Below, piece after piece: positions 3,189 to 60,213 of a DNA stretch of 64,000 bases. Made by a program: the position numbers and the translations under genes. Origin of the DNA: Luteolibacter sp. LG18 (GTDB lineage Bacteria > Verrucomicrobiota > Verrucomicrobiia > Verrucomicrobiales > Akkermansiaceae); NCBI RefSeq assembly GCF_036322585.1, contig NZ_AP024600.1:1364001-1428000 (forward strand). Reading direction: 5' to 3'. Numbering within the stretch: the first letter of the stretch is position 1; the number at the start of each line of letters is the position of its first letter. The notes under the pieces are model-generated. The model saw only the letters and a program-made list of their open reading frames with translations. It had not been told where the DNA came from and searched no databases.

Positions 3189-3433
3189 GCCGGTGGTCGA
3201 GGAGCCTTGGCGACGACACCACCGGACTGGTCGAGTCATGGACAGGCACCCCGGAGGGCGTGCGAGAAGCGTGCCCCGGGCTCCACGCGAAAAATGGGCA
3301 ATGAAATTCCACGGGCCTCCGAACCCGGCTGCGATCCCCTTCGGGATCGAATGACCTTTCCGGCCTCACCGGAGGTTTCGTCGCCAAGGCTCCTCAACCT
3401 CCGGCTACTGGGGCTGCCATCCCCTTCGGGGAT
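3189..3433. repeat. Long inverted repeat with CCCCTTCGGGG hairpins in a gene-free spacer
   Basis: The 570-base stretch 2953-3522 has no convincing gene. It contains arms GGTCGAGGAGCCTTGGCGAC (3195-3214) and GTCGCCAAGGCTCCTCAACC (3380-3399) in inverted orientation, plus short hairpins built on ATCCCCTTCGGGAT near 3335-3349 and 3419-3433. Hairpins of this kind are dispersed intergenic elements in verrucomicrobial and planctomycete genomes (from memory, not checked). Promoters of the flanking divergent genes must lie here too, but I cannot place them. Confidence 0.6.
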
Positions 3434-3522
3434 ACAGAGTCCACGATTTGCATAAAGATCAGGGTGCGAGCCCCGGCCACGCGGTGCTTGGAATCCCGTC
3501 CCGGACGCGGTAAGCCCCGTCC

Positions 3523-4059
3523 GTGGACGAGAGCCCGATCATCGATTTGCAAAGCGACGCCTTCTTCATGGGCCAGGCCCTGCGCGAAGCGCGGAAGGCC
3601 TATCAGGCCACGGAAGTGCCGATCGGCGCGGTGGTCGTGCGCGAAGGCAAGGTGATCGCCCGCGCCTGGAACCAGGTGGAAACGCTGAAGGACGCCACCG
3701 CCCACGCCGAGATGCTGGCCCTCACCGCCGCCCAACAGGCGCTGGGGGACTGGCGGCTGGAGAAATGCACGCTCTACGTGACGAAGGAACCCTGCCCGAT
3801 GTGCGCCGGGGCCATCGTCCACTGCCGCCCGGAACGCGTCGTCTTCGGCTGCCCGGACGCCAAGGCCGGGGCTGCCGGCGGCTGGATCAACCTGCTGGAA
3901 TCGAACCCGCCGCTCAACCACCGCTGCGACATCACCTCTGGAGTGATGGGGGACGAATGCCTGGCCCTGCTCCAGGGGTTCTTCCGCGAAGCGCGGGAGA
4001 AGAAGAAGGCGGAGCGGCTGGGGCTCAACCTTCCCCCTATTCCGGAGATCGGCGAGTAA
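3523..4059 (+). CDS. tadA: tRNA-specific adenosine deaminase
   Basis: A 178-residue TadA. It converts adenosine 34 to inosine in the tRNA-Arg anticodon, in the cytoplasm. The zinc site is complete: HAE at residues 61-63 (zinc ligand and catalytic glutamate) and PCPMC at 90-94 (two zinc cysteines). The start is GTG 3523; ATG 3568 (MGQALREAR) would also give a full deaminase domain, so the N-terminal 15 residues are uncertain. The C-terminal tail after residue 150 is lysine-rich and slightly extended. holA follows 65 bases downstream on the same strand. Confidence 0.93.
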   Translation: MDESPIIDLQSDAFFMGQALREARKAYQATEVPIGAVVVREGKVIARAWNQVETLKDATAHAEMLALTAAQQALGDWRLEKCTLYVTKEPCPMCAGAIVHCRPERVVFGCPDAKAGAAGGWINLLESNPPLNHRCDITSGVMGDECLALLQGFFREAREKKKAERLGLNLPPIPEIGE

Positions 4060-48291: not shown

Positions 48292-49452
48292 TTATTTGGC
48301 AAAGGTGTAACCGAGGGCCGTGGCCTGCTCGCGGGTGGCCTCGACGAGGGCTTCATCGAGCGTCTTGTCCCCCTTCACGGCCTGCTTCTTCATTTCCTCG
48401 GCGACGAACGCCTCGCGCTCGCGGTTGAGGGTGCGGATCTGCTCCTGGATGTCGGCACGGGCCTTCGCGGTCTTTTCGACGTAAGCGGTGCGTTCCTCCG
48501 GCTTGAGATCGCGCATGGCGGCGGGCACGGCGGAATCCGCGAGCTTCGCCGGATCGACCTTCTTCTCCCTCCAGGCATCGACGAGATCCCAACTGGTGTT
48601 CGAGTAATTGGTGCCGGTCTTGGCGGCGATCCGGCTGCTGGCCGCGCCGGACTTGGCGTTCGCGTCGGCATCGCGGTCGGCCTCCTGCTGGCGTGCGGCT
48701 CCGGCGGCACCATCCTTTCCGTAGCCGAGGTAGGTCTTGTTGAGCTCGAGGTTGAGCTCCGAGATCCGCTTGTCCTGCGGTGCAGGGACGCTGACGATGG
48801 CGCGGTCCTGGTTGATGACCATGAACTTTCCGCCACCGAGCGCGGCTCCATCGTGCCACGAGCCGGACATGCCTTCCTCGCGGCTGCCGCAGTGGATGGT
48901 GTTGACGGTGACGCCCTTGGCGAGAGCCTCCTTGCAGGCCTTCCGCGCATCAACGGAGCCCTGGGTGAAGGGTTCATTGCCGGCGATGAAGATCACCTTG
49001 TAGGTGTCCTTGGCGTCATCCCAGCGGAGGTCGGAAAGCGAGCGCTGGATGACCGCGCCGCAGTATTCCTCGCCACCGTTGGTCTTGAGCGAGAACAACG
49101 ACTTGCTCAGCGAATCGAGGTCGCGGGTGAGCGGCTGGACCTGGCGGACCCACTGGTTGTCGACGCTGAGGTTGTTGTTGCCGTATTCGTAGAGGGCCAC
49201 CTCGATGCGCGGCGGCTCGCCGTCGCGCTTGGCGTCGGTGAAAGTATTGACGACTTTCCAGAGCTGGGTCTTCGCCTGGTCGATCAGTCCATCCATGCTG
49301 TTCGAGGTGTCGAGCAGCAGGGCGATCTGGACCTTGTTCTTGGCCGGGGACGGATCGACCTCCGGCGGGCGCGGGTCTTCCGCGCCTTTCGCCATCAACG
49401 GGAGAGCGAGGCCCAGCCAGGCGGCGGACAGGAAATGGATGTGCGTTTTCAT
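48292..49452 (-). CDS. Exported von Willebrand factor A domain protein
   Basis: A 386-residue protein with a signal peptide (MKTHIHFLSAAWLGLALPLMAKG). A VWA domain starts at about residue 40, with the MIDAS motif DTSNS in IALLLDTSNSMDG. Later segments (VIFIAGNEPFTQGSV, VNTIHCGS) fit the same fold. The C-terminal third is helical and charged, with many DAD/KAR clusters. It is cotranscribed with the rhodanese gene. Role unknown; probably metal-dependent protein binding outside the cytoplasm. Confidence 0.85.
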   Translation of the reverse strand: MKTHIHFLSAAWLGLALPLMAKGAEDPRPPEVDPSPAKNKVQIALLLDTSNSMDGLIDQAKTQLWKVVNTFTDAKRDGEPPRIEVALYEYGNNNLSVDNQWVRQVQPLTRDLDSLSKSLFSLKTNGGEEYCGAVIQRSLSDLRWDDAKDTYKVIFIAGNEPFTQGSVDARKACKEALAKGVTVNTIHCGSREEGMSGSWHDGAALGGGKFMVINQDRAIVSVPAPQDKRISELNLELNKTYLGYGKDGAAGAARQQEADRDADANAKSGAASSRIAAKTGTNYSNTSWDLVDAWREKKVDPAKLADSAVPAAMRDLKPEERTAYVEKTAKARADIQEQIRTLNREREAFVAEEMKKQAVKGDKTLDEALVEATREQATALGYTFAK

Positions 49453-49506
49453 CACACCCCACGGATACCGCGTCCCCGCCGGGCTGTCCGTAAACGCCCG
49501 GTAAAT

Positions 49507-52095: not shown

Positions 52096-52428
52096 CTACA
52101 GGAGATACAGCTCCACGAATTGCTTGAGTCCGAAAAGAGCGAAGACGGCGACCAAAACGATCAGGGTGAGACAGCCCAGCAGGCTGCAGCGGTTCCCAAA
52201 GCTCTCCGCCTCGACTCGCTTCTCTTCAGGCGTCTTGATGAATTCAATGCAGGCGATGTTCATATCGGCATCCCCCACGAGAACGGAGCGCTCATCTCCA
52301 TCGAGAAGCCGGTTCACGGCGTCCCGCAGAAGTTCAAAGGCAGGCCGACTGCCCATGACCTTCATCAGGCCACGGTTCTCCGGATATTCATCGAGTTCGA
52401 AAAAGGGATGATCGGGTTCGTTGTCCAT
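52096..52428 (-). CDS. Small tail-anchored membrane protein inside the RNA-repair operon
   Basis: A 110-residue protein starting at ATG 52428 (MDNEPDHPFFELDEYPEN); a start at 52458 would run into the sixth Y-RNA-like element. The acidic N-terminal part is soluble. Residues ~88-110 (SLLGCLTLIVLVAVFALFGLKQF) form one membrane helix at the C-terminus. I know no family. It lies between the sixth RNA and rtcB on the same strand, 45 bases from rtcB. Confidence 0.7.
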   Translation of the reverse strand: MDNEPDHPFFELDEYPENRGLMKVMGSRPAFELLRDAVNRLLDGDERSVLVGDADMNIACIEFIKTPEEKRVEAESFGNRCSLLGCLTLIVLVAVFALFGLKQFVELYLL

Positions 52429-52442
52429 GGTGCTGATAAGGA

Positions 52443-52584
52443 GATCGAACGGCGGCAAGGGTGTGGTGGAACGTTCCTGCTCTACCTGACTGAGCTACCG
52501 GACCACCGGGGGAAGTCCGGGTCGGATTCGAACCGACGACCAGGTTGTCTTTAACAATGTAGTTTCACCGGCATCCGCCGATCG
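52443..52584 (-). ncRNA. Y-RNA-like element 6 with permuted tRNA core
   Basis: On the minus strand the outer helix pairs CGGCGG with CCGCCG, with an internal loop AUGCC opposite CCCUUG. Then GGUGAAAC pairs with GUUCCACC (one mismatch), followed by UACAU. Inside is a complete tRNA core in permuted order: T arm GTCGG-TTCGAAT-CCGAC (52521-52537), acceptor strands CCGGAC/GTCCGG closed by an 11-base loop (52504-52514), the two bases UA, and D arm GCTC-AGTCAGGTA-GAGC (52479-52495). The ends meet where a tRNA has its anticodon stem. It lies between a CPCC gene (stop at 52600) and a small membrane protein gene. Confidence 0.85.
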
Positions 52585-52599: not shown

Positions 52600-53352
52600 T
52601 CAAAGGTAGGCGAGACGGACGAAGTCGGGAACCCATTGACTCCATCCGGCTTTGAGGCCCTTGGTCGCCTCCTCGTTCCCAGCCGGATCGTAGCGTTCAT
52701 AAAAACAGAGGAAGGCGGCGACCGCCTGGTGCTGTGACTTCGAAAGCAGGTTGAATCGCTGGTCATCCGGCGTAGGGCCGCATTCCAAGCTGTAAAAGAT
52801 GAGATTGTGGCAGAGTTCCCGGTGGCGATTGCTTTTCAGCGTGAAGCGCAGGAACGCCGGGAGATGGAATCGGACGGAAACGGGGTCGAGGCAGTTCAAC
52901 GTGAGATGACGCAGGCTGATGAGGGCGGAATCCGGAATGTCTTGCCATCGAAGCTGCGGGGATCCCGCGAGAGACTGGTATTGGGCATCGGTATGCCAGT
53001 CCTCCAGGAGTCCCTGCTGGGCCAGATTCATTCCGTTGCCGAGCAATACCTTTTCGAAGGATTCCTCCACGAAACGGAGGATCTTTTCCCGCATCTGCTC
53101 CACCGACAGCCAATGCCCGGAGCGGGCTTCCTCCGACGAGGGAGGTCTGACCATGTTCAGGAACTGGGCAGCAGTGGCTCCATGAGCCAGGAAGTTCCGC
53201 TGGGCCTCGGCGAGGGTCGGCTGGTCAATCAGCCAGCATGCCTCTCCGACATCCTCCCAGAAGCACACCGGACAGATCTCCATCGTCCCGCCCGCCGGAG
53301 ACGGCAGCGTGCGGTAGCCGCAGCAGGGACATGGATGACGATCGGAATTCAT
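52600..53352 (-). CDS. CPCC cysteine-cluster protein, paralog 1
   Basis: A 250-residue protein starting MNSDRHPCPCCGYRTL. The CPCC-type cysteine domain has CPCC at residues 8-11 and ICPVCFWEDV about 20 residues later, four to five cysteines able to bind zinc. The remaining 200 residues are helical (VEQMREKILRFVEESFEKVLLG) and end PDFVRLAYL. It is a tandem paralog of 53402-54166, with identical last nine residues. The GC content looks lower than in the flanking genes. Function unknown; CPCC proteins often appear as single accessory genes. Confidence 0.8.
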   Translation of the reverse strand: MNSDRHPCPCCGYRTLPSPAGGTMEICPVCFWEDVGEACWLIDQPTLAEAQRNFLAHGATAAQFLNMVRPPSSEEARSGHWLSVEQMREKILRFVEESFEKVLLGNGMNLAQQGLLEDWHTDAQYQSLAGSPQLRWQDIPDSALISLRHLTLNCLDPVSVRFHLPAFLRFTLKSNRHRELCHNLIFYSLECGPTPDDQRFNLLSKSQHQAVAAFLCFYERYDPAGNEEATKGLKAGWSQWVPDFVRLAYL

Positions 53353-53401: not shown

Positions 53402-54166
53402 TCAAAGGTAAGCGAGACGGACGAAATCGGGGAGGTGGTTGCTCCATCCTCTTTCGAGGCCCTTGGCGGCTTCCCAATTCTTGCTGTGGTCGTAGTGGGT
53501 GAAAAAAGAGAGGAACGCCGCCACGGCCTGGCGTTGTTTACCCTCCAGCGAGCGGAACTTCGGTCCGAAGTGATCGCTTGATTCCGGGCCTCCGGCGAGA
53601 TCGGAAAGCACGAATCCGGTCTCGGAATCGACAATCGACCAATGCCTCAAGATGTATCGCATGAATGCGGGGAGATGGAAGTGGATGGATTCCAGATCGA
53701 GGTAAGTAAGCGTGAGTCCGAACTGGGCCGCCAAAGCGCCATCCGGAATATCCTGCCAGCGGGCGGACGGATCTTTCGAGGCAGCCGCGACAATTTCTTC
53801 CTCCGTTCCCCAGTCGTCGATGATCTGCTGTTGGCGGAGATTGATGCCACCGCCGAGAAGAATCTTCGCGAACGCTTCCTCGATGAAGCGGATGGTTTTC
53901 TCCCGCATTCCTTCGACCGAAAGCCAATGAACCGAGCGTTCTTCTTCAGGCAATGGCCTGCGGACGGAATCGAGGAACGCAGGCACCACAGCTCCCGTGA
54001 GGAGAAACTCCGCTTGGGCCTCGGAGAGCCAGGGCAGATCGAGCACCCACCAGCCATCCCCGACATCCTCCCAGAAGCACACCGGACAGATCTCCATCGT
54101 CCCGCCCGCCGGAAGTGGCAGCGTGCGGTAGCCGCAGCAGGGACATGGATGACGATCGGCGTGCAT
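53402..54166 (-). CDS. CPCC cysteine-cluster protein, paralog 2
   Basis: A 254-residue paralog starting MHADRHPCPCCGYRTL at ATG 54166, chosen because it matches paralog 1. Upstream in-frame starts (54217, 54535) would translate the Y-RNA array. Same layout: a CPCC domain with ICPVCFWEDVGDGWW, then a helical region (VEGMREKTIRFIEEAFAKILLGGGINLRQQQ) ending PDFVRLAYL. It begins 14 bases after Y-RNA-like element 5 on the same strand. Confidence 0.8.
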   Translation of the reverse strand: MHADRHPCPCCGYRTLPLPAGGTMEICPVCFWEDVGDGWWVLDLPWLSEAQAEFLLTGAVVPAFLDSVRRPLPEEERSVHWLSVEGMREKTIRFIEEAFAKILLGGGINLRQQQIIDDWGTEEEIVAAASKDPSARWQDIPDGALAAQFGLTLTYLDLESIHFHLPAFMRYILRHWSIVDSETGFVLSDLAGGPESSDHFGPKFRSLEGKQRQAVAAFLSFFTHYDHSKNWEAAKGLERGWSNHLPDFVRLAYL

Positions 54167-54180
54167 GATTGAAGAAGAGG

Positions 54181-54253
54181 GAACGGCGACAAGGAGTGGT
54201 GAAACGTCCGTTGTCATGGGCAAGTGATGTAGTTTCACCGGCATTCGCCGTTC
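54181..54253 (-). ncRNA. Y-RNA-like element 5, minimal form
   Basis: A 73-base element. The outer helix GAACGGCGA/TCGCCGTTC is perfect (54245-54253 with 54181-54189). The internal loop is AUGCC opposite ACUCCUUG. The inner helix GGTGAAAC/GTTTCACC is also perfect, then UACAU and a loop of about 21 bases. No tRNA-like arms are present. This is the cleanest view of the shared helix. Confidence 0.85.
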
Positions 54254-54305
54254 GGGATGGTTTGGAATGAAAGCGCCAGTATGCGGCGTGAAGGATTGAA
54301 GGGGA

Positions 54306-54436
54306 TTCGCGACAAGGGGCGGAAAGAGACGGGTCCACTGCTCTACCCCTGAGCTACCGCAGTCCCAGCGAGGGAACGGGGGCGGACTCGAACCGCCGAC
54401 CAATGGAATCAATGTAATCTTTCCTGCATTCGCGAA
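54306..54436 (-). ncRNA. Y-RNA-like element 4 with permuted tRNA arms
   Basis: Outer helix TTCGCGA/TCGCGAA (54430-54436 with 54306-54312), internal loop AUGCA opposite GCCCCUUG, inner helix GGAAAGA/TCTTTCC, then UUACAU. The interior has T arm GGCGG-TTCGAGT-CCGCC (54381-54397), a short imperfect acceptor-like hairpin with TCCC/GGGA core and TCGCT loop, then UA and D arm GCTC-AGGGGTA-GAGC (54340-54354). As in element 6 the T arm precedes the D arm. Confidence 0.85.
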
Positions 54437-54443
54437 AGGAGGT

Positions 54444-54540
54444 GCCGACAAGGAGCGGCGGGACGTGACCGGATCATTTGATCCGGGCGGGTTCTCAGGC
54501 CCGCGGTTCAGTGGTGATGTAGTCCCGCCTGGCATTCGGC
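54444..54540 (-). ncRNA. Y-RNA-like element 3
   Basis: Outer helix GCCGA/TCGGC, internal loop AUGCCA opposite GCUCCUUG, perfect 8-base inner helix GGCGGGAC/GTCCCGCC, then UACAU. Two hairpins lie inside: GCGGG/CCCGC, in the place of the T arm but without the TTC loop, and the perfect CCGGATC-AAAT-GATCCGG. It ends 7 bases before element 4. Confidence 0.8.
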
Positions 54541-54556
54541 GTGTGTTTGAAGGAGG

Positions 54557-54654
54557 TCCACGACAAGAATTGGCGGAAGAACATTCCGGCCGCTTGGGTT
54601 CGTATCCGAACCTGCCATGCCGGTCCCAAATGTAATCTTCCGGGCATTCGTGGA
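54557..54654 (-). ncRNA. Y-RNA-like element 2
   Basis: Outer helix TCCACGA/TCGTGGA (54648-54654 with 54557-54563), internal loop AUGCC opposite CCAAUUCUUG, inner helix CGGAAGA/TCTTCCG, then UUACAU. The interior holds a hairpin GGTTCG-GATA-CGAACC inside a CCGGC/GCCGG helix, so a compact rod replaces the tRNA-like core. Confidence 0.8.
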
Positions 54655-54667
54655 GAGGGGATGCCGA

Positions 54668-54786
54668 CGCGGCGGCAAGGAGGGTGAGAATGTGCCGGCC
54701 ATCGGCGTCCGGACTGGTCGATCAGCCCGACGGGAGTCGAACCCGCTATCTGCTTTCGAGATGTATTCCCGCCGGCATTCGCCGCG
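54668..54786 (-). ncRNA. Y-RNA-like element 1, first after rsr
   Basis: It begins 11 bases after the rsr stop codon. Outer helix CGCGGCG/CGCCGCG (54780-54786 with 54668-54674), internal loop AUGCC opposite CUCCUUG, inner helix GGCGGGAAT/ATTCTCACC (one mismatch), then ACAU. A T arm GCGGG-TTCGACT-CCCGT (54730-54746) is followed by an acceptor-like hairpin GGGCTG-ATCGAC-CAGTCC. The D-arm position holds a small hairpin instead of a standard D arm. Confidence 0.82.
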
Positions 54787-54797
54787 GCGGCAAAAGG

Positions 54798-56375
54798 TCA
54801 TGCGATTTTCAGTCGTGTCTTGAGGGGTTGCTTTTCGATTTCGCGGAGCCAGTGGTCCGTTCCGTCCGCTCCCGCCGCGAAGGCGGCGACGAGGTCGAAG
54901 ACGGTGTCGCTGAATCCGCCGATATTGAGGATGTCCGCGCGGTCCGGTGCCTGCACGGTGGTGTTCGGCACCAGGTCGATGCAGACGAGACGGGCGTTCG
55001 GATTGCGCTGCTTGAAGAGATTCCACTCCGCGAGCACCGCGGTCCCGCGGCCACCCTGGCGGGCATCCATCCACGACTCGTTGTCCGAGACGTAGATCAC
55101 GAGGTCGGCCTGGGCCTTCTCCGCGTTCAGCAACCGGAGCGGGGCCGAACAGTTCGTTCCGCCGCCGCCGACCTTCGCCAGCTTCGCCGCGTTGGTCATG
55201 ACGCTGTCGCGGGGATTGAGCTTCAGCTTCACCACGTCGCACTCGAAGGGCAGGACGCGGGCGTCCCGGTTCTTCCGCAGGAAGGCAGCGGCGATAAGAC
55301 CGGCGACATCGACGCAGCGGACCTTCGAGCTCGCGCCCTTCTGGTAACCGGTCACGGAAGACTGCATCGATCCCGACACATCCGCGCACACGACCACCCG
55401 CCCGGCGATGTCCGGCACGTTTCCGAGCGCGGCTTCCATCGCATCCTGGAGCGCCTCCTTGATCGCGTGCGGCATTTCCGCCGCGGCGTTGAGGAAGGCA
55501 ACCAGCAACTGGTAGGGGAAGACACGGGCGCGACGGATCGCTTCGGGATCGGCGAGACGCTTGGCCAGCGTGGCGACGAGTTCCCGATTTCCGGCGAGGC
55601 CGTGGCGGAGGAAGGTGTTCAGGTTCATCCGCGTGGTCTGCCACGAGGCATTCCGCGCGATGGCGGCCCATTCCTTTTCACCGAGGTCCTGCGCGGTGAG
55701 CATCTGGAAGGGCACGGCCGGGATGTCACCGGCGCGGTCGCGCTTCCAGTCCTCGAAGCAGCGCAGCGCGGCGGGCAGGACGTCCGGGTTCCACGGCTTT
55801 CCGATCAGCCAGGCGTAGAACGCCTCGCGGGACGGCTCGGCCGGACGCGGGTGGACCATCTTCACGATGTCCGCCAGCGACGGCGCGTTGCCGATGGAGG
55901 CGTCGATGAGCTGGCGCTCGGTGGCGCGTTCGAGCCACTGGCGGACGAGGCGCTTCGGCGCGGAGCCGAGCGACTTCCGGCCGGTGACGCCGGAACGGAG
56001 GATCTGGACGAAGGTCCGGAGCATCCGGCCATTGTCGATGACCTGCGGGAAGACTTCGGCGAGCCGGTCGAGATCGCGGGTGGCGAGCACGGCGCAGAGC
56101 AGGGCGGGCACGTCCTTCATGAACGCGCGGCGTCGGGCATAGAGGGCAGTGCGGGCGAGGAAATCCACGTCCACCTGCTTCGCGAACTCCAGCACGCGGT
56201 CGAGCTGGGTCTCGGCGGTCGCGTAGAACGTGCGGTTCAGGCAGCCGGTGGCGGCGAGCTGAGCGAGCGCGGCCTCCGGGGAACCGGCGTAGGCGGGAGC
56301 CTGGGCGTCGTTGACCGCATCGGTGCGGGGAGCGAGGACGCCGCGAATGGTCTGGAAGAGGTTGCGATTGGCCAT
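54798..56375 (-). CDS. rsr: Ro60-like TROVE/VWA RNA-binding protein (Rsr)
   Basis: A 525-residue bacterial Ro60. The N-terminal two thirds are the ring of helical repeats typical of the TROVE module (CLNRTFYATAETQLDRVLEFAKQVDVDFLARTALYARRRAFMKDVPALLCAVLATRD). The C-terminal VWA-like domain has the MIDAS motif DVSGSM at residues 332-337. In characterised bacteria Rsr binds Y RNAs and joins polynucleotide phosphorylase in RNA decay. Here it is the first gene after a sigma-54 promoter and is followed immediately by Y-RNA-like elements. ATG 56375 is chosen; the upstream reading crosses the promoter. Confidence 0.93.
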   Translation of the reverse strand: MANRNLFQTIRGVLAPRTDAVNDAQAPAYAGSPEAALAQLAATGCLNRTFYATAETQLDRVLEFAKQVDVDFLARTALYARRRAFMKDVPALLCAVLATRDLDRLAEVFPQVIDNGRMLRTFVQILRSGVTGRKSLGSAPKRLVRQWLERATERQLIDASIGNAPSLADIVKMVHPRPAEPSREAFYAWLIGKPWNPDVLPAALRCFEDWKRDRAGDIPAVPFQMLTAQDLGEKEWAAIARNASWQTTRMNLNTFLRHGLAGNRELVATLAKRLADPEAIRRARVFPYQLLVAFLNAAAEMPHAIKEALQDAMEAALGNVPDIAGRVVVCADVSGSMQSSVTGYQKGASSKVRCVDVAGLIAAAFLRKNRDARVLPFECDVVKLKLNPRDSVMTNAAKLAKVGGGGTNCSAPLRLLNAEKAQADLVIYVSDNESWMDARQGGRGTAVLAEWNLFKQRNPNARLVCIDLVPNTTVQAPDRADILNIGGFSDTVFDLVAAFAAGADGTDHWLREIEKQPLKTRLKIA

Positions 56376-56416: not shown

Positions 56417-56432
56417 GGCATGGCCCGTGCCA
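56417..56432 (-). promoter_or_regulatory. Sigma-54 promoter of the RNA-repair operon
   Basis: On the minus strand the sequence is TGGCACGGGCCATGCC: a -24 GG and -12 GC with exactly ten bases between, and a full TGGCAC element. It lies about 42 bases before the rsr start, facing it. RtcR, a sigma-54 activator, is encoded divergently 137 bases away. Confidence 0.85.
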
Positions 56433-56552
56433 AAGGGGGTGAGAGGCAAAATCCACCAATCGCAATTCACTCACTACGAATTGATTAAAAATGTTCGGAT
56501 TTTTTCGAGGGTCGGAATCGGTCGCTATTTTCTTCCTTTAGAATCGCTTATC

Positions 56553-56568: not shown

Positions 56569-58167
56569 ATGAAGCGAGTGGCCATCGGAATCCTCGGCAC
56601 AAAGCTGGACCACGGCTTCTGGGAAGACCGCTGGGACACCTGGCGACCGACGGTTTCGCTGTTCCAGCACGAGGAGCTGCTGTTCGACCGCTTCGAACTG
56701 CTGGCCGAGAAGAGCTTTTCGAAGTTGTCCGGGCAGGTGCTGGCGGACGTGCGGCAGGTCTCGCCGGAAACCGAGGCGCGGCTGCACGAGGTTGCGTTCG
56801 GGCGCGACCCGTGGGACCTGGAGGCGGTGTACGGGGCGCTGCACGATTGGGCGCGGGCCTACCCCTTCGATCCGGAGCACGAGGAGTACTACGTCCACAT
56901 CACCACCGGCACCCACATCGCCCAGATCTCGCTGTTCCTGCTGAACGAGGCGGGAACCCTTCCGGGGAAGCTGATCCAGACCTCGCCGCCGGTGGGGAAG
57001 AGCCATCGCAAGGCCCCGCGCGCGAGCTACTCACTGATCGACCTGGATCTCTCGAAGTACGATAAACTTAGTACCCGTTTCGCCGAAGAGCAGGCGGAGG
57101 CCACGGATTTCCTGAAGAGCGGGATCGCGACGCGGAACTCCGCGTTCAACCGGATGATCGACCGCATCGAGCAAGTGGCGCTGCGGTCGAAGGCCCCGAT
57201 CCTGCTGCACGGCGCGACCGGCGCGGGGAAGTCCCAGCTCGCGCGGCGGCTGCACGAGCTGAAGAAGCAGCGCGGCGGTCTGAAGGGGCCCTTCGTGGAG
57301 ATCAACTGCGCGACCCTCCAGGGCGACACGGCGGCCTCGGCTCTGTTCGGCCACGTGCGGGGCTCGTTCACGGGCGCACAGCGCGACCGGCCGGGGCTGC
57401 TGCGGGAGGCGGACGGCGGCATGCTGTTTCTCGACGAGATAGGGGAACTGGGGCTGGACGAGCAGGCGATGCTGCTGAGGGCGTTGGAGGACAAGACCTT
57501 CCTGCCGGTGGGCTCCGACCGCCCGGCGACGAGCGATTTCCTTCTGATCGCGGGCACCAACCGCGACCTGCGCGGCGAGGTGGCGCAGGGGCGCTTCCGC
57601 GAGGACCTGCTGGCACGCATCAACCTGTGGACCTTCACGCTGCCCTCACTGGCGCAGCGGCGGGAGGACATCGCGCCGAACCTGGACTACGAGCTGCGCC
57701 GGTTCGCGGGATCGCACGGGCGTGAGGCGAGTTTCAACAAGGAGGCACGGCAGCGTTTCCTGGCCTTCGCGGAGGCGGTGGACACGCCGTGGTCCGGGAA
57801 CTTCCGCGACCTGAACGCGGCGGTCACGCGGATGGCCACGCTGGCACCGCGCGGACGCATCCGGGTGGAGGAAGTGGACGAGGAAATCGACCGCCTGCGC
57901 GAAAGCTGGCACCGGCCGGGCGCGGGCGGCACGGCGGACGGCGTGGATCTGGAAGAGGTGCTCGGGGAGCGGGTGGAAAAGATCGATCCGTTCGACCGGG
58001 TGCAGCTCGCGCACGTGGTGGCGGTGTGCCGTCGCTCGAAGACGCTGTCGGAAGCGGGAAGGCAGTTGTTCGCGGTATCGCGGAAGAAGCGGGCGGTGAC
58101 GAACGACGCGGACCGATTGAAGAAGTACCTGGCGAAATTCGGGCTGGTGTTTGAGGGGCTGAGGTAG
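56569..58167 (+). CDS. rtcR: Sigma-54-dependent activator RtcR
   Basis: A 532-residue RtcR. The N-terminal domain (residues 1-180; VAIGILGTKLDHGFWEDRWDTWRPTVSL, YYVHITTGTHIAQISLFLLNEAG) is the CARF-type sensor that in other RtcR proteins is thought to sense an RNA-end-derived ligand. The AAA+ domain follows: Walker A GATGAGKS (215-222), sigma-54 contact loop GSFTGA (265-270, variant of GAFTGA) and Walker B GMLFLDEIGEL. The C-terminal helices would bind DNA upstream of the rsr promoter. Its stop codon lies at the edge of an inverted repeat. Confidence 0.95.
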   Translation: MKRVAIGILGTKLDHGFWEDRWDTWRPTVSLFQHEELLFDRFELLAEKSFSKLSGQVLADVRQVSPETEARLHEVAFGRDPWDLEAVYGALHDWARAYPFDPEHEEYYVHITTGTHIAQISLFLLNEAGTLPGKLIQTSPPVGKSHRKAPRASYSLIDLDLSKYDKLSTRFAEEQAEATDFLKSGIATRNSAFNRMIDRIEQVALRSKAPILLHGATGAGKSQLARRLHELKKQRGGLKGPFVEINCATLQGDTAASALFGHVRGSFTGAQRDRPGLLREADGGMLFLDEIGELGLDEQAMLLRALEDKTFLPVGSDRPATSDFLLIAGTNRDLRGEVAQGRFREDLLARINLWTFTLPSLAQRREDIAPNLDYELRRFAGSHGREASFNKEARQRFLAFAEAVDTPWSGNFRDLNAAVTRMATLAPRGRIRVEEVDEEIDRLRESWHRPGAGGTADGVDLEEVLGERVEKIDPFDRVQLAHVVAVCRRSKTLSEAGRQLFAVSRKKRAVTNDADRLKKYLAKFGLVFEGLR

Positions 58168-58272
58168 CGTAAGTTTCCAACTTGCGCATGGGTGCAGCGG
58201 ACCCATGGGAAATGTCGCGGGTATTTCACCACGGTCCGCCGCCAGCGCTCACAAGTTGGAAACTTGTGCTAC
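58163..58272. repeat. Inverted repeat AAGTTTCCAACTTG at converging gene ends
   Basis: The left arm GTAGCGTAAGTTTCCAACTT (58164-58183) and the right arm AAGTTGGAAACTTGTGCTAC (58253-58272) face each other. The rtcR stop TAG lies in the left arm. The last six codons (AQVSNL) and stop of the converging nucleotidyltransferase gene are formed by the right arm. Confidence 0.88.
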
Positions 58273-60096
58273 TTCAAACTCGTTTCGGATGTCGACGAGC
58301 AGGGCGTTGATCCGGTCGCGATCGGGTTCGTCCGGCAGCGAGCTCTTCTCGAATGCCTGGCGGACGCGAAGGAGCTGCTGCTCGGCGCGATCGACGAGTT
58401 CGTCGTATTCGAACTCCCCGGCGCGGACCCGGAGCAGGAAGTCGCGGTTCGGGCGGCGGACCCGCAGCACGCCCTCGCGGGCGATTTCCTCGGCCATGTC
58501 GAGCAGGCGCAGGGTGTGGAGGAGGTTCTTGGAATCGTAGCCGCGGCCGTGCTCCGCGTTGGTGCGGTAGCGCTGCTCGTTGCGGTTGGCGACCCATTCC
58601 CAGTATTCGCGGTGGGCCTTGCAGTGGGCGCGGAAGGCATCGCGGTTGCAGGTCATCCAGGCGATGGGCGCGGCGTCCTTCGGCACGCTGCTGAAATGGA
58701 GCGCGTCCGGATCCTTCGGCGACACGATGCCGCGGTAGTTCACGGCGGGATCATGGTAGATCGCGAAGAGGTCGCTGGCGTGGGTCAGGGCGGTGAGGCC
58801 GCAGTCTTCCGCGTGCAGGCCGCGCGCCGCCAGCCAATCGCGGACCGGCAGGCTGCCCTGGCCTTCCGGCACATGGCAGAACTCGAGCAGTTCCATGCGC
58901 CGCTCCGGCTGGGGATTGACGATCTTCTTGTTCAGCCCGCGGGCCTTGCGGATCTGGCCCATGGCGTATTCGCCGAAGGTGGCGGCGCAGCGCTTCGACA
59001 GGAACAGCTCCGGCCGGAGACGGTCGAACAAGGGATGGCGGTAGCGGATGCAGTCGTCCGGCGAGGCGAGTAGCTCAAGGACGTTCGGATTGTTCCGCAG
59101 CAGCAGCTCCACGAAACGGCCGAGCTCATAGTAGACCTCGTCGTTGCGTTCATCGGCGACCTGCTCGATGGCATCGAGTCCGAACAGGAACGAGGTCGGC
59201 GCGAGGAAGACGCCGCGGCGGTCCTCATCCGAGCCCTCAACCGCGGTGCCATAGGCGTGGCTGCCCGCAACGGTATCGAACAACAGCAGGTCCGGCTGGC
59301 GGACGCGATCCAAGGTGAGGTCCTCCGGCTTGAGAATCGTGGTGGCGGGATCACGCAGTTCGGTGGCGAACAGGCGGTCGAGCACGGCCAGGTCCGCGTG
59401 TGAGCGGTCCGGCAGATCGTCGAACTGTCCGGAGGCTTCCTCCAGAAACGCATCGAGCACCGGCAGACGGGCCATGCGTTCGCCCTCGTTGGTGGCGGCT
59501 TTGTGTTTCAGCAGGGCTGGCACCAGCTCCTGCACATCGGACGGAGCAATCGGCAACAGTTCCGCGAAGGCGACCGATGGGATGCCCTTGCCGGAAAGGA
59601 TCCAACGCGCGGCGAGGGTGGCGCGGAGGGCGTAGAGGTAGTCCTTCGCCCGGACTTGGTCGGACTGGAGCTTGCCGAGCCACATCTGCTTCGCGAGACC
59701 GCGGTAGTGATCGGAGGCGGCGCGCGGCGAGAAGACGTCGCGGGCCGTGGCGCGCCAGCGGCCTAGGAAACCGGGTTCTTCGCGATAGACGATGGGAGAA
59801 TGCAGCCACTCGAGGAGAGCGCCGTTCGATTTCCCGAGGAGGCCCGCCGCCTTCCGCACGTCCCAGCCGCCGGCATCGAGTTCATCCACGATCGGGAGAT
59901 CGATGGCCGAAGTGGCGCCCCCGATGGCGAGGTAGGCGTGCCGCGGGTGGACGAAGAGGAAGCGGATGTCGTAATCGCTGTCCGGGGAGGCAAAGCCCCA
60001 CGCACGGCTGCCGGATTCGCAGGCGTAGAGGATGCGGAAACCGTGCTGGCGCTCGATGCCATCCAGTAGATCCCCGATGCGTTTCTCGACGGTCAT
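58249..60096 (-). CDS. Double RlaP-type nucleotidyltransferase
   Basis: A 615-residue protein with two polymerase-beta-type nucleotidyltransferase domains of the YcgL/RlaP group. Domain 1 has ESGSRAWGFASPDSDYDIR (about 27-45); domain 2 has AGSHAYGTAVEGSDEDRR (about 277-294). Both show the G-S helix start and two acidic positions for metal, though the second reads D-E-D rather than D-Y-D. RlaP-type proteins are known neighbours of RNA ligases in repair operons and are thought to add nucleotides to, or modify, RNA ends. It converges on rtcR. ATG 60096 is chosen; a longer reading to 60165 exists. Confidence 0.85.
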   Translation of the reverse strand: MTVEKRIGDLLDGIERQHGFRILYACESGSRAWGFASPDSDYDIRFLFVHPRHAYLAIGGATSAIDLPIVDELDAGGWDVRKAAGLLGKSNGALLEWLHSPIVYREEPGFLGRWRATARDVFSPRAASDHYRGLAKQMWLGKLQSDQVRAKDYLYALRATLAARWILSGKGIPSVAFAELLPIAPSDVQELVPALLKHKAATNEGERMARLPVLDAFLEEASGQFDDLPDRSHADLAVLDRLFATELRDPATTILKPEDLTLDRVRQPDLLLFDTVAGSHAYGTAVEGSDEDRRGVFLAPTSFLFGLDAIEQVADERNDEVYYELGRFVELLLRNNPNVLELLASPDDCIRYRHPLFDRLRPELFLSKRCAATFGEYAMGQIRKARGLNKKIVNPQPERRMELLEFCHVPEGQGSLPVRDWLAARGLHAEDCGLTALTHASDLFAIYHDPAVNYRGIVSPKDPDALHFSSVPKDAAPIAWMTCNRDAFRAHCKAHREYWEWVANRNEQRYRTNAEHGRGYDSKNLLHTLRLLDMAEEIAREGVLRVRRPNRDFLLRVRAGEFEYDELVDRAEQQLLRVRQAFEKSSLPDEPDRDRINALLVDIRNEFEVAQVSNL

Positions 60097-60164
60097 GCGC
60101 AGCGGATAGCGGGATGCTTGGTCTGCGGCAAGGGCATCCGGTGGATGCAGAAAGGGCGAAGTCA

Positions 60165-60213
60165 CCAGACTCCGCCCCCCTTGAAGACCTTCCTCGGCTG
60201 AAGCCTCAACTCC
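60165..60213. repeat. 'CCTCGGCTRAAGCC' repeat, single copy
   Basis: The segment ACCAGACTCCGCCCCCCTTG is followed by AAGACCTTCCTCGGCTGAAG and CCTCAACTCC, then the TGA (complement, 60214-60216) of the peptidoglycan-binding protein gene. It is a further copy of the family at 5264-5526 and 20208-20268, again directly 3' of a stop codon. Confidence 0.82.

What the first reader, a model, noticed from the sequence alone, without database searches (positions are those of the whole stretch)
54181..54786. Tandem array of five Y-RNA-like elements plus one more at 52443-52584
All six share the order outer helix, AUGC opposite CUUG internal loop, inner helix, UACAU. The helices differ in sequence but stay paired (GGCGGGAC/GTCCCGCC, GGAAAGA/TCTTTCC, CGGAAGA/TCTTCCG, GGTGAAAC/GTTTCACC), which is covariation inside one genome. 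The constant internal loop is the natural Ro60 contact. Known operons usually carry one or two Y RNAs; six is unusual.
Basis: partly seen in the sequence, partly recalled or inferred. Interest (0 to 1): 0.92.

Follow-up and report, generated by a model that had tools for sequence, protein, structure and literature searches.

The report
Bank of six bacterial Y RNAs
In a bacterial RNA-repair operon lies a bank of six small RNA genes, five of them in a row, that share one presumed protein-binding stem but carry different heads, some shaped like a transfer RNA; relatives carry two to nine, so one repair protein may be fitted with a changeable set of RNA attachments.

Summary
The window carries six Y RNA genes, all on the minus strand, in an RNA-repair operon: rsr (Ro60 orthologue), five Y RNAs, two CPCC/DUF6714 genes, a sixth Y RNA, a small ORF, rtcB, rtcA, with rtcR divergent upstream. 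The constant stem (AUGC opposite CUUG, then UACAU) is in all six, and they are the six best matches to the Y model in the 5.8 Mb genome. Covariation in a wider alignment is strong. Only Y6 passes Rfam's YrlA threshold. Six is above the clade median of four but not exceptional: 50 operons with rtcB in sight (this one included) carry 2 to 9 copies. Arrays are polar: the copy next to rsr is mostly short and headless, the last mostly tRNA-headed. A second, distant Rsr family keeps the tRNA-like head but has another stem, which supports the stem as the protein contact. Best reading: a polycistronic bank of Rsr-binding RNAs with exchangeable heads, induced by tRNA damage; binding, processing and function are inferred. 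New variant of a known kind (rsr-yrlBA operons).

The parts
54669..54785 (-). Y1: Y RNA, 16 nt behind the rsr stop; handle plus T arm (GGGTTCGACTCCC) and an acceptor-like hairpin, no canonical D arm
   Evidence: R1 57.2 bits; Rfam YrlA 23.4 bits, below gathering; orthologue in L085, 104 of 117 aligned positions identical
54557..54654 (-). Y2: Y RNA with a non-tRNA head (long apical hairpin)
   Evidence: R1 33.8 bits; 96 of 98 positions identical in L085 while four-fold degenerate sites of rsr are 125 of 176 identical
54442..54542 (-). Y3: Y RNA with two hairpins in place of T arm and acceptor stem, no D arm
   Evidence: R1 33.3 bits; free MFE fold contains the handle
54306..54436 (-). Y4: Y RNA with full tRNA-like domain (T arm, acceptor hairpin, D arm)
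   Evidence: R1 96.3 bits (in the model's seed); Rfam YrlA 55.1 bits, below gathering; alignment A1
54183..54251 (-). Y5: minimal 69-nt Y RNA, handle with a short loop
   Evidence: R1 45.6 bits; Rfam 38 bits; handle form 19.7 kcal/mol stable, a different fold is 0.4 kcal/mol better
52449..52581 (-). Y6: Y RNA with full tRNA-like domain, separated from the array by two genes
   Evidence: Rfam YrlA 72.9 bits, over the gathering score of 69; R1 109.2 bits (in the model's seed)
54798..56375 (-). rsr, Ro60 orthologue (HEAT-like helices plus vWA with DVSGS MIDAS motif); start placed where the homologues align, the longest ORF begins at 56474
   Evidence: Pfam vWA_Ro60 68.4 bits, TROVE 21.3 bits (just under its cut-off 23); phmmer to 2nvo E 2.4e-21; Foldseek: all 13 PDB matches with E<=0.001 are Ro60/Rsr/TROVE
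56417..56432 (-). sigma54-type promoter-like site TGGCACGGGCCATGCC, 41 nt before the rsr start
   Evidence: the form TGGC[AC][CT]-N6-TGC occurs before rsr in 20 of 49 related loci, 0.28 expected by shuffling (the window is not among the 20 because there the stretch was anchored at the longest ORF)
56569..58167 (+). rtcR, sigma54 activator with RtcR/CARF-type sensor domain
   Evidence: Pfam RtcR 248.2 bits and Sigma54_activat 170.9 bits
53402..54169 (-). CPCC + DUF6714 protein gene, first copy
   Evidence: Pfam
52600..53352 (-). CPCC + DUF6714 protein gene, second copy
   Evidence: Pfam
52096..52431 (-). small ORF, 111 aa, no Pfam match; also seen in L030, L085, L091, L101
50569..52050 (-). rtcB, RNA ligase
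   Evidence: Pfam RtcB 330.3 bits
49507..50526 (-). rtcA, RNA 3'-phosphate cyclase
   Evidence: Pfam RTC 254.8 bits

Best explanation
This is an rsr-Y RNA-rtcBA RNA-repair operon with an expanded, modular bank of Y RNAs. Each RNA is a handle plus a head. The handle (outer helix, AUGC opposite CUUG, inner helix, UACAU) is constant in form and holds Rsr; the heads differ: full tRNA-like domain (Y4, Y6), T arm only (Y1), other hairpins (Y2, Y3), nearly none (Y5). Broken tRNAs activate RtcR, which with sigma54 switches on the operon; one long transcript is cut into Rsr mRNA, six Y RNAs and rtcBA mRNA; Rsr is loaded with one of several Y RNAs. Headless ones would only occupy the Rsr ring; tRNA-headed ones would bring it to enzymes that know tRNA (modification enzymes, PNPase, RtcB substrates) or act as decoys of tRNA; Y2/Y3-type heads would bring other partners. 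SHOWN by sequence: six handles, head types, covariation, one strand, rsr/rtcR/rtcB/rtcA context, conserved promoter-like site, array size and polarity in relatives, matching of handle type to Rsr type. INFERRED: transcription, processing, Rsr binding, induction, the role of each head.
For: Six handles, 6 of 6 with all three sequence signatures, top six of the genome. Covariation on a MAFFT alignment of 29 full-headed copies. Rsr fold. Operon genes. All 224 copies found in 53 type I rsr loci lie on the rsr strand; spacers: median 26 nt, 152 of 171 at most 60 nt: packed like a tRNA precursor. Handle of 188 anchored copies: own outer arms fully paired in 164 of 188 against 21% after exchange, with 33 distinct outer 5' arms. 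Heads evolve apart from handles, and a non-tRNA head is conserved: Y2 96 of 98 against 71% at four-fold sites. Polarity: first copies 41 of 52 without a full tRNA-like domain and 36 of 52 at most 100 nt; last copies 39 of 52 full and 1 of 52 at most 100 nt. Type I handle (strict scanner) in 48 of 53 type I and 0 of 12 type II rsr loci; type II RNAs carry a different stem in 14 of 14 aligned copies. Sigma54-like site. Literature passages: Salmonella operon order rsr-yrlB-yrlA-rtcB-rtcA, sigma54/RtcR control (PMC9879122); tRNA fragments with cyclic phosphate activate RtcR (PMC7790460); YrlA tethers Rsr to PNPase and is a substrate of DusA and TruB (PMC8394870).
Against: No RNA data: discrete RNAs, processing and Rsr binding are unproven. 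Y5's handle form is not its free-energy minimum (by 0.4 kcal/mol), Y6's by 4.5 and Y1's by 1.5 kcal/mol; Y2, Y3 and Y4 fold into the handle freely. Y1-Y3 are far below Rfam's gathering score, in the range of tRNA-pair spacers. Polarity and median rest partly on 28 copies found by my scanner alone (23 of them in first position): with R1 copies only the median is 3.5 and first copies are 24 of 51 without full head, 14 of 51 at most 100 nt; the scanner's false-positive rate is however about 0 (0 in 20 simulated sets, 0 on the opposite strand, 1 in 433,765 bases elsewhere). No single host tRNA stands out as the model of Y4 or Y6 (25 distinct tRNAs from the 30 loci fetched of 54 matches).
Confidence: 0.75

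Rival explanations
1. Dosage and decay: the copies are redundant tandem duplicates that raise Y RNA output; only Y4 and Y6 matter, and Y1, Y2, Y3 and Y5 are heads in neutral decay.
For: Copy number varies from 2 to 9 among relatives; heads range from full to absent; Y5's handle resembles that of Y6 and of full-headed copies in relatives (nearest: L098 copy 3, 49 of 54 handle positions, 126 nt), as if the head had been deleted.
Against: Y2, which lacks a tRNA-like head, is the most conserved copy (96 of 98 against 125 of 176 four-fold sites). Headless copies sit by preference first, full ones last, and headless handles keep pairing. 51 of 53 loci keep at least one full head, which decay under redundancy would also allow.
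Confidence: 0.2
2. mRNA elements, not free RNAs: the hairpins act in the long transcript, as processing sites or stabilisers between rsr and rtcB.
For: Y1 begins 16 nt behind the rsr stop and spacers are short; no separate promoters or terminators were established.
Against: They match a family whose members are known as free, Rsr-bound RNAs (PMC8394870 passages); tRNA-like heads with T and D arms have no reason to exist in a UTR; type II copies lie in front of rsr, not between genes of one transcript in the same order.
Confidence: 0.07
3. Decoy bank: the tRNA-like heads mainly protect tRNAs by occupying an anticodon nuclease or another tRNA-reading enzyme, and Rsr only stores them.
For: Raised as a possibility for YrlA in PMC7790460 (passages); operon induced there by broken tRNAs; heads look like whole tRNAs without anticodon arm, some with the CCA end built in.
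Against: The anticodon arm, which such nucleases cut, is the part that is missing; four of six copies here have no full head.
Confidence: 0.15
4. Permuted tRNA genes or tRNA-gene relics unrelated to Rsr.
For: Heads match tRNA halves in permuted order; Rfam YrlA and R1 also match spacers of tandem tRNAs.
Against: Constant handle outside the tRNA part, present also in headless Y5; one locus in the genome, next to rsr; ARAGORN finds no tRNA in the window.
Confidence: 0.01

Closest known systems
YrlA/YrlB of the Salmonella rsr-yrlB-yrlA-rtcB-rtcA operon
   Same: Same gene order logic, RtcR/sigma54 setting, Rfam YrlA match of Y6; several Y RNAs between rsr and rtcB. (That YrlB lacks a tRNA-like domain is recalled, not tested.)
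   Different: Six RNAs instead of two, up to nine in relatives; graded head types; two extra CPCC/DUF6714 genes inside the operon; RlaP gene beyond rtcR.
Deinococcus radiodurans Rsr/Y RNA/PNPase (RYPER)
   Same: Rsr orthologue: phmmer 2nvo E 2.4e-21, Foldseek 2nvo E 4.9e-19; Y RNAs presumed to tether Rsr.
   Different: D. radiodurans Y RNA sequences were not compared here; PNPase was not examined.
Phage Ro60 (Thermus phage phiLo, PDB 9l5y) and the type II Rsr of this order
   Same: Same Ro60 fold; type II loci carry RNAs with the same tRNA-like head.
   Different: 24-30% protein identity; different RNA handle (GGYAGUGA, UACUUCG, UUUUCUCC); RNA in front of rsr.
Rfam RF02553 (YrlA)
   Same: All six match over the full model.
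   Different: Gathering score reached by 1 of 6 here, and by 7 of 40 copies over the window, L030, L038, L043, L085 and L091 together: current annotation misses most of the bank.

Membership tests
Bacterial Y RNA (Rsr-bound) | Conserved basal stem with internal loop, closed by 5' and 3' ends | tested here: met
   6 of 6 copies; covariation
Bacterial Y RNA (Rsr-bound) | Gene next to an rsr gene, same strand | tested here: met
   Y1 is 16 nt behind rsr; 224 of 224 copies in 53 loci on the rsr strand
Bacterial Y RNA (Rsr-bound) | Physical binding to Rsr | not testable with these tools
   Only indirect: handle type follows Rsr type
YrlA (RF02553) | Score over Rfam gathering threshold (69 bits) | tested here: met
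   Y6 only, 72.9 bits
YrlA (RF02553), Y1-Y5 | Score over Rfam gathering threshold | tested here: not met
   55.1, 38, 26.3, 25.4, 23.4 bits: Y1-Y5 are not filed as YrlA, only as Y RNAs
YrlA (tRNA-like domain) | T arm, acceptor hairpin and D arm in permuted order | tested here: met
   Y4 and Y6. Not met in Y1 (no D arm), Y2, Y3, Y5
Rsr / Ro60 | Ro60 fold with vWA domain and MIDAS motif | tested here: met
   AlphaFold2 model mean pLDDT 83.1, Foldseek top 13 all Ro60/Rsr/TROVE, TM 0.59-0.75 by query; DVSGS; vWA_Ro60 over cut-off, TROVE model 21.3 under its cut-off 23
RtcR-controlled RNA-repair operon | rtcR divergent, sigma54-type promoter, rtcB and rtcA | tested here: met
   the promoter is a sequence match only
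RYPER (Rsr-Y RNA-PNPase) | Y RNA tethers Rsr to PNPase | not testable with these tools
   recalled and from PMC8394870 passages

The most novel reading that the evidence does not exclude
Ro-type ring proteins in bacteria are platforms with plug-in RNAs: a protein-specific handle is kept (AUGC/CUUG for type I Rsr, AGUGA/UUUUCUC for type II Rsr, other handles beside DUF2828/DUF7788 proteins) while heads are freely swapped, copied, lost or replaced along an array of up to nine genes. The tRNA-like heads are permuted tRNAs, ten of which still hold the tRNA's CCA end inside the RNA, and at least one non-tRNA head (Y2) is under strong selection. The array would then be a repertoire that sends one ring protein to several RNA-handling partners after tRNA damage.
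Probability: 0.35. Interest if true: 0.8.

Novelty: new variant of a known kind. Interest (0 to 1): 0.58.

Why it matters
What bacterial Ro60 proteins and Y RNAs do is open; work cited here rests on one- or two-RNA systems. A clade in which one Rsr faces 2 to 9 natural Y RNA variants, some with full tRNA-like heads and some without, makes the split between handle and head directly testable: which head brings which partner, and whether headless Y RNAs act as gates. The match between Rsr type and handle type gives a ready specificity swap. It also shows that current annotation (Rfam gathering threshold) finds only 7 of 40 copies in six operons.

Tried and rejected
Rejected or set aside: (1) Rfam score alone as proof: tandem-tRNA spacers reach the same scores as Y1-Y3. 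(2) 'Six is a record': G152 (L091) has nine, G239 (L085) eight. (3) A specific tRNA as model of the heads: no clear winner among 25 distinct tRNAs. (4) A regular expression for the type II handle was too strict, finding 3 of 12 type II loci; I then aligned the R1 matches instead. RNAalifold finds only the head, not the stem, in that alignment, so the type II stem is shown by conserved letters, not by covariation. (5) A sigma54 pattern with at most one mismatch missed the site before rsr (2 matches, 2.77 expected); a looser pattern found it. (6) The first AlphaFold2 job, on three sequences, was poor (mean pLDDT 59.5) and was replaced. (7) A viral-contig scan with the DUF2828 protein found no relative, although tblastn found 672 of 50,697 phage records. 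(8) Weak R1 matches in six rsr-poor genomes: 11 of the 14 loci fetched hold tRNA genes at the match; the other three are a type II rsr locus and two parts of a DUF2828 locus.

Selection: loci L030-L049 were picked by the rsr protein (20 stretches from 19 relatives out of 58 relatives searched); 18 are type I. Loci L085-L124 are 40 of the 116 genomes with an R1 match, mostly the best-scoring, so counts from them lean high; in the rsr-picked subset with rtcB in sight (17 loci) the median is also 4, with 16 of 17 at three or more and 2 of 17 at six or more. L115 has no rsr match and was left out of the counts; L049 (type II) has no R1 match over 21 bits. Of 224 copies 36 lacked one of the two sequence anchors and were left out of the arm-exchange test.

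Literature: the papers most likely to have described multi-copy arrays (Chen 2014 RNA; Sim and Wolin 2018; Wang 2018; Sim 2020; Chen 2013) are not held; of them I recall at most the abstracts. Recalled from Chen 2014: likely Y RNAs near Ro60 in over 250 bacterial and phage species, at least one per species with a tRNA-like domain. Searches of the open library found no account of such arrays; that is no proof of novelty.

Full report
OBSERVATION. Six elements with the order outer helix, AUGC opposite CUUG, inner helix, UACAU lie on the minus strand at the places given; each signature is in 6 of 6. A scanner found exactly these six in the window and none in 30 simulated windows. In the whole 5.8 Mb genome model R1 ranks the six first (109.2 to 33.3 bits); the next match, 27.0 bits, is to the tRNA-like part only. 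Y4 and Y6 are in R1's seed, the other four are not. Rfam calls all six YrlA over the full model, one above its gathering score; because tRNA-pair spacers score 21.8-23.1, this is not enough alone for Y1-Y3.

SETTING. Reading the minus strand: rlaP (on the far side of rtcR), then rsr, Y1-Y5, two CPCC/DUF6714 genes, Y6, a 111-aa ORF, rtcB, rtcA; rtcR runs the other way in front of rsr. Rsr has a vWA_Ro60 domain over its cut-off and a TROVE match just under it (21.3 against 23). A model from 24 sequences (mean pLDDT 83.1) finds 13 PDB chains with E at most 0.001, all Ro60, Rsr or TROVE proteins. The genome has one Rsr by this test. A sigma54-like site, TGGCAC-N5-ATGCC, lies 41 nt before the likely start; a looser form is found before rsr in 20 of 49 related loci against 0.28 expected.

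ANATOMY. Y4 and Y6 carry variable loop, T arm (GGUUCGANNCC), a hairpin that stands for the acceptor stem, UA and D arm, in the order of a tRNA cut in the anticodon arm and rejoined at the acceptor end. Y1 has T arm and acceptor hairpin but no D arm; Y3 has two hairpins in those places without the T-loop letters; Y2 has one long hairpin; Y5 has a short loop. Forced into the handle, Y2, Y3 and Y4 keep their best energy, Y5 loses 0.4, Y1 1.5 and Y6 4.5 kcal/mol. In ten of the 224 copies of relatives a 7-base acceptor strand is followed at once by ACCA and, after 5-12 bases, by a partner strand pairing in 6 or 7 of 7 places: the tRNA's end is built in. Window Y6 has lost it; its orthologue in L085 has it.

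COVARIATION. On a MAFFT alignment of 29 full-headed copies 94.1% of 774 cells pair against 76.6% in shuffles and 37.8-50.5% when partners are slid; 19 of 27 pairs have changes on both sides (12.8 in shuffles). The structure was predicted on the same alignment. Exchanging arms between 188 anchored copies lowers full outer pairing from 164 of 188 to 21%. Without asking for pairing, 52 of 61 sequence-motif instances in the window and L030-L049 pair in at least 5 of 6 outer places.

RELATIVES. 53 loci with window-type (type I) Rsr hold 224 copies, 196 found by R1 and 28 by my scanner only. In the 50 loci with rtcB in sight, this one included, array sizes are 2 (2 loci), 3 (9), 4 (25), 5 (6), 6 (3), 7 (2), 8 (2), 9 (1); median 4. 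With R1 copies only the median is 3.5 and the range still 2-9. The scanner is clean: 0 in 20 simulated sets, 0 on the opposite strand, 1 in 433,765 bases outside arrays. Three sphingomonad loci (L051-L053) hold four each, so arrays are not confined to this order. All 224 copies lie on the rsr strand, spacers median 26 nt. In the nearest relative (L085, Rsr 464 of 528 identical) Y1, Y2, Y3, Y4 and Y6 have orthologues in the same order (copies 1, 2, 3, 4, 8); Y5 has no own one, being nearest to copy 8, and copies 5-7 of L085 have none here. Y2 is 96 of 98 identical while four-fold sites of rsr are 125 of 176.

POLARITY. First copies: 31 without T or D arm, 10 with T only, 11 full; 36 of 52 at most 100 nt. 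Last copies: 39 full of 52, 1 of 52 at most 100 nt. Of the 28 scanner-only copies 23 are first copies, so with R1 copies only the trend is weaker: first 27 of 51 full, last 38 of 51 full; at most 100 nt 14 against 1. 51 of 53 loci have a full-headed copy; the two without are L050 and L054. The published Salmonella order is rsr-yrlB-yrlA-rtcB-rtcA (PMC9879122, passages).

HANDLE FOLLOWS PROTEIN. Twelve loci hold a second Rsr (type II), at least 56% identical among themselves and 24-30% to type I. Eleven of the twelve have one or two RNAs with the tRNA-like head (R1 48 bits or more) in front of rsr; their stem has GGYAGUGA, UACUUCG and UUUUCUCC instead (14 copies). The strict type I motif is found in 48 of 53 type I loci and 0 of 12 type II loci. 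Same head, different stem, different Rsr: the best evidence here that the stem is the Rsr contact. RNAalifold does not find the type II stem, so its pairing is not shown. A thirteenth case turned up in L125 (Rsr 66.9% identical to type II).

MECHANISM. See Best explanation. Shown: sequence, structure conservation, context. From papers seen as passages: RtcR responds to tRNA fragments with cyclic phosphate (PMC7790460); YrlA links Rsr to PNPase and is modified by DusA and TruB (PMC8394870). Inferred: that the six are cut from one transcript, bind Rsr, and differ in partners by head.

VERDICT. Real, and a Y RNA bank; not a new kind of system. New are, as far as the open library shows, its size and head diversity across a clade, the polarity, the built-in CCA and the match of handle to Rsr type. 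The decisive older papers could not be read, so this claim of novelty is weak.

Noticed in passing
L139:3500-4200 (-) with L139:1966-3465 (-); L144:2950-4000 (-): A third kind: in 2 of 195 genomes of the family a DUF2828/DUF7788 protein (vWA-type) occurs, and both have RNAs with the tRNA-like head just in front of it (R1 42.2/38.0 and 52.5/38.6 bits), in arrays of about four and five copies with other handles (GAACUUU..CUGCAA / GAAGUUCCGGCAACUCC; CAGCAA..CUUG). Rfam YrlA matches only the head; no TROVE protein in that genome.
   Followed up: partly
phage records, e.g. L145: DUF2828 relatives in 672 of 50,697 phage records, e.g. Felixounavirus, where the gene is followed by tRNA genes and a 28-bit tRNA-like match at L145:4894-4980.
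   Followed up: partly
52600-53352 and 53402-54169 (-): Two CPCC/DUF6714 genes split the Y array; the same gene lies in the operon in 6 of 53 type I loci (window, L085, L089, L090, L091, L101). Function unknown.
   Followed up: partly
L115:3302-3433 (-): An RNA with full tRNA-like head (59.8 bits) between rtcR and rtcB in a locus where no rsr was found; its stem is neither type I nor clearly type II.
   Followed up: no
L118:1519-2419 (+): A type II rsr locus lies beside six tRNA genes; partial R1 matches suggest tRNA genes near other type II loci too.
   Followed up: no
58249-60165 (-): RlaP, an RNA-repair-associated nucleotidyltransferase (Pfam PF10127, 315.2 bits), next to rtcR.
   Followed up: no
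48292-49455 (-): A vWA-domain protein gene directly beyond rtcA.
   Followed up: no
L040:3056-3271 and 3428-3648 (+): Two unusually long Y copies (216 and 221 nt) in one relative.
   Followed up: no
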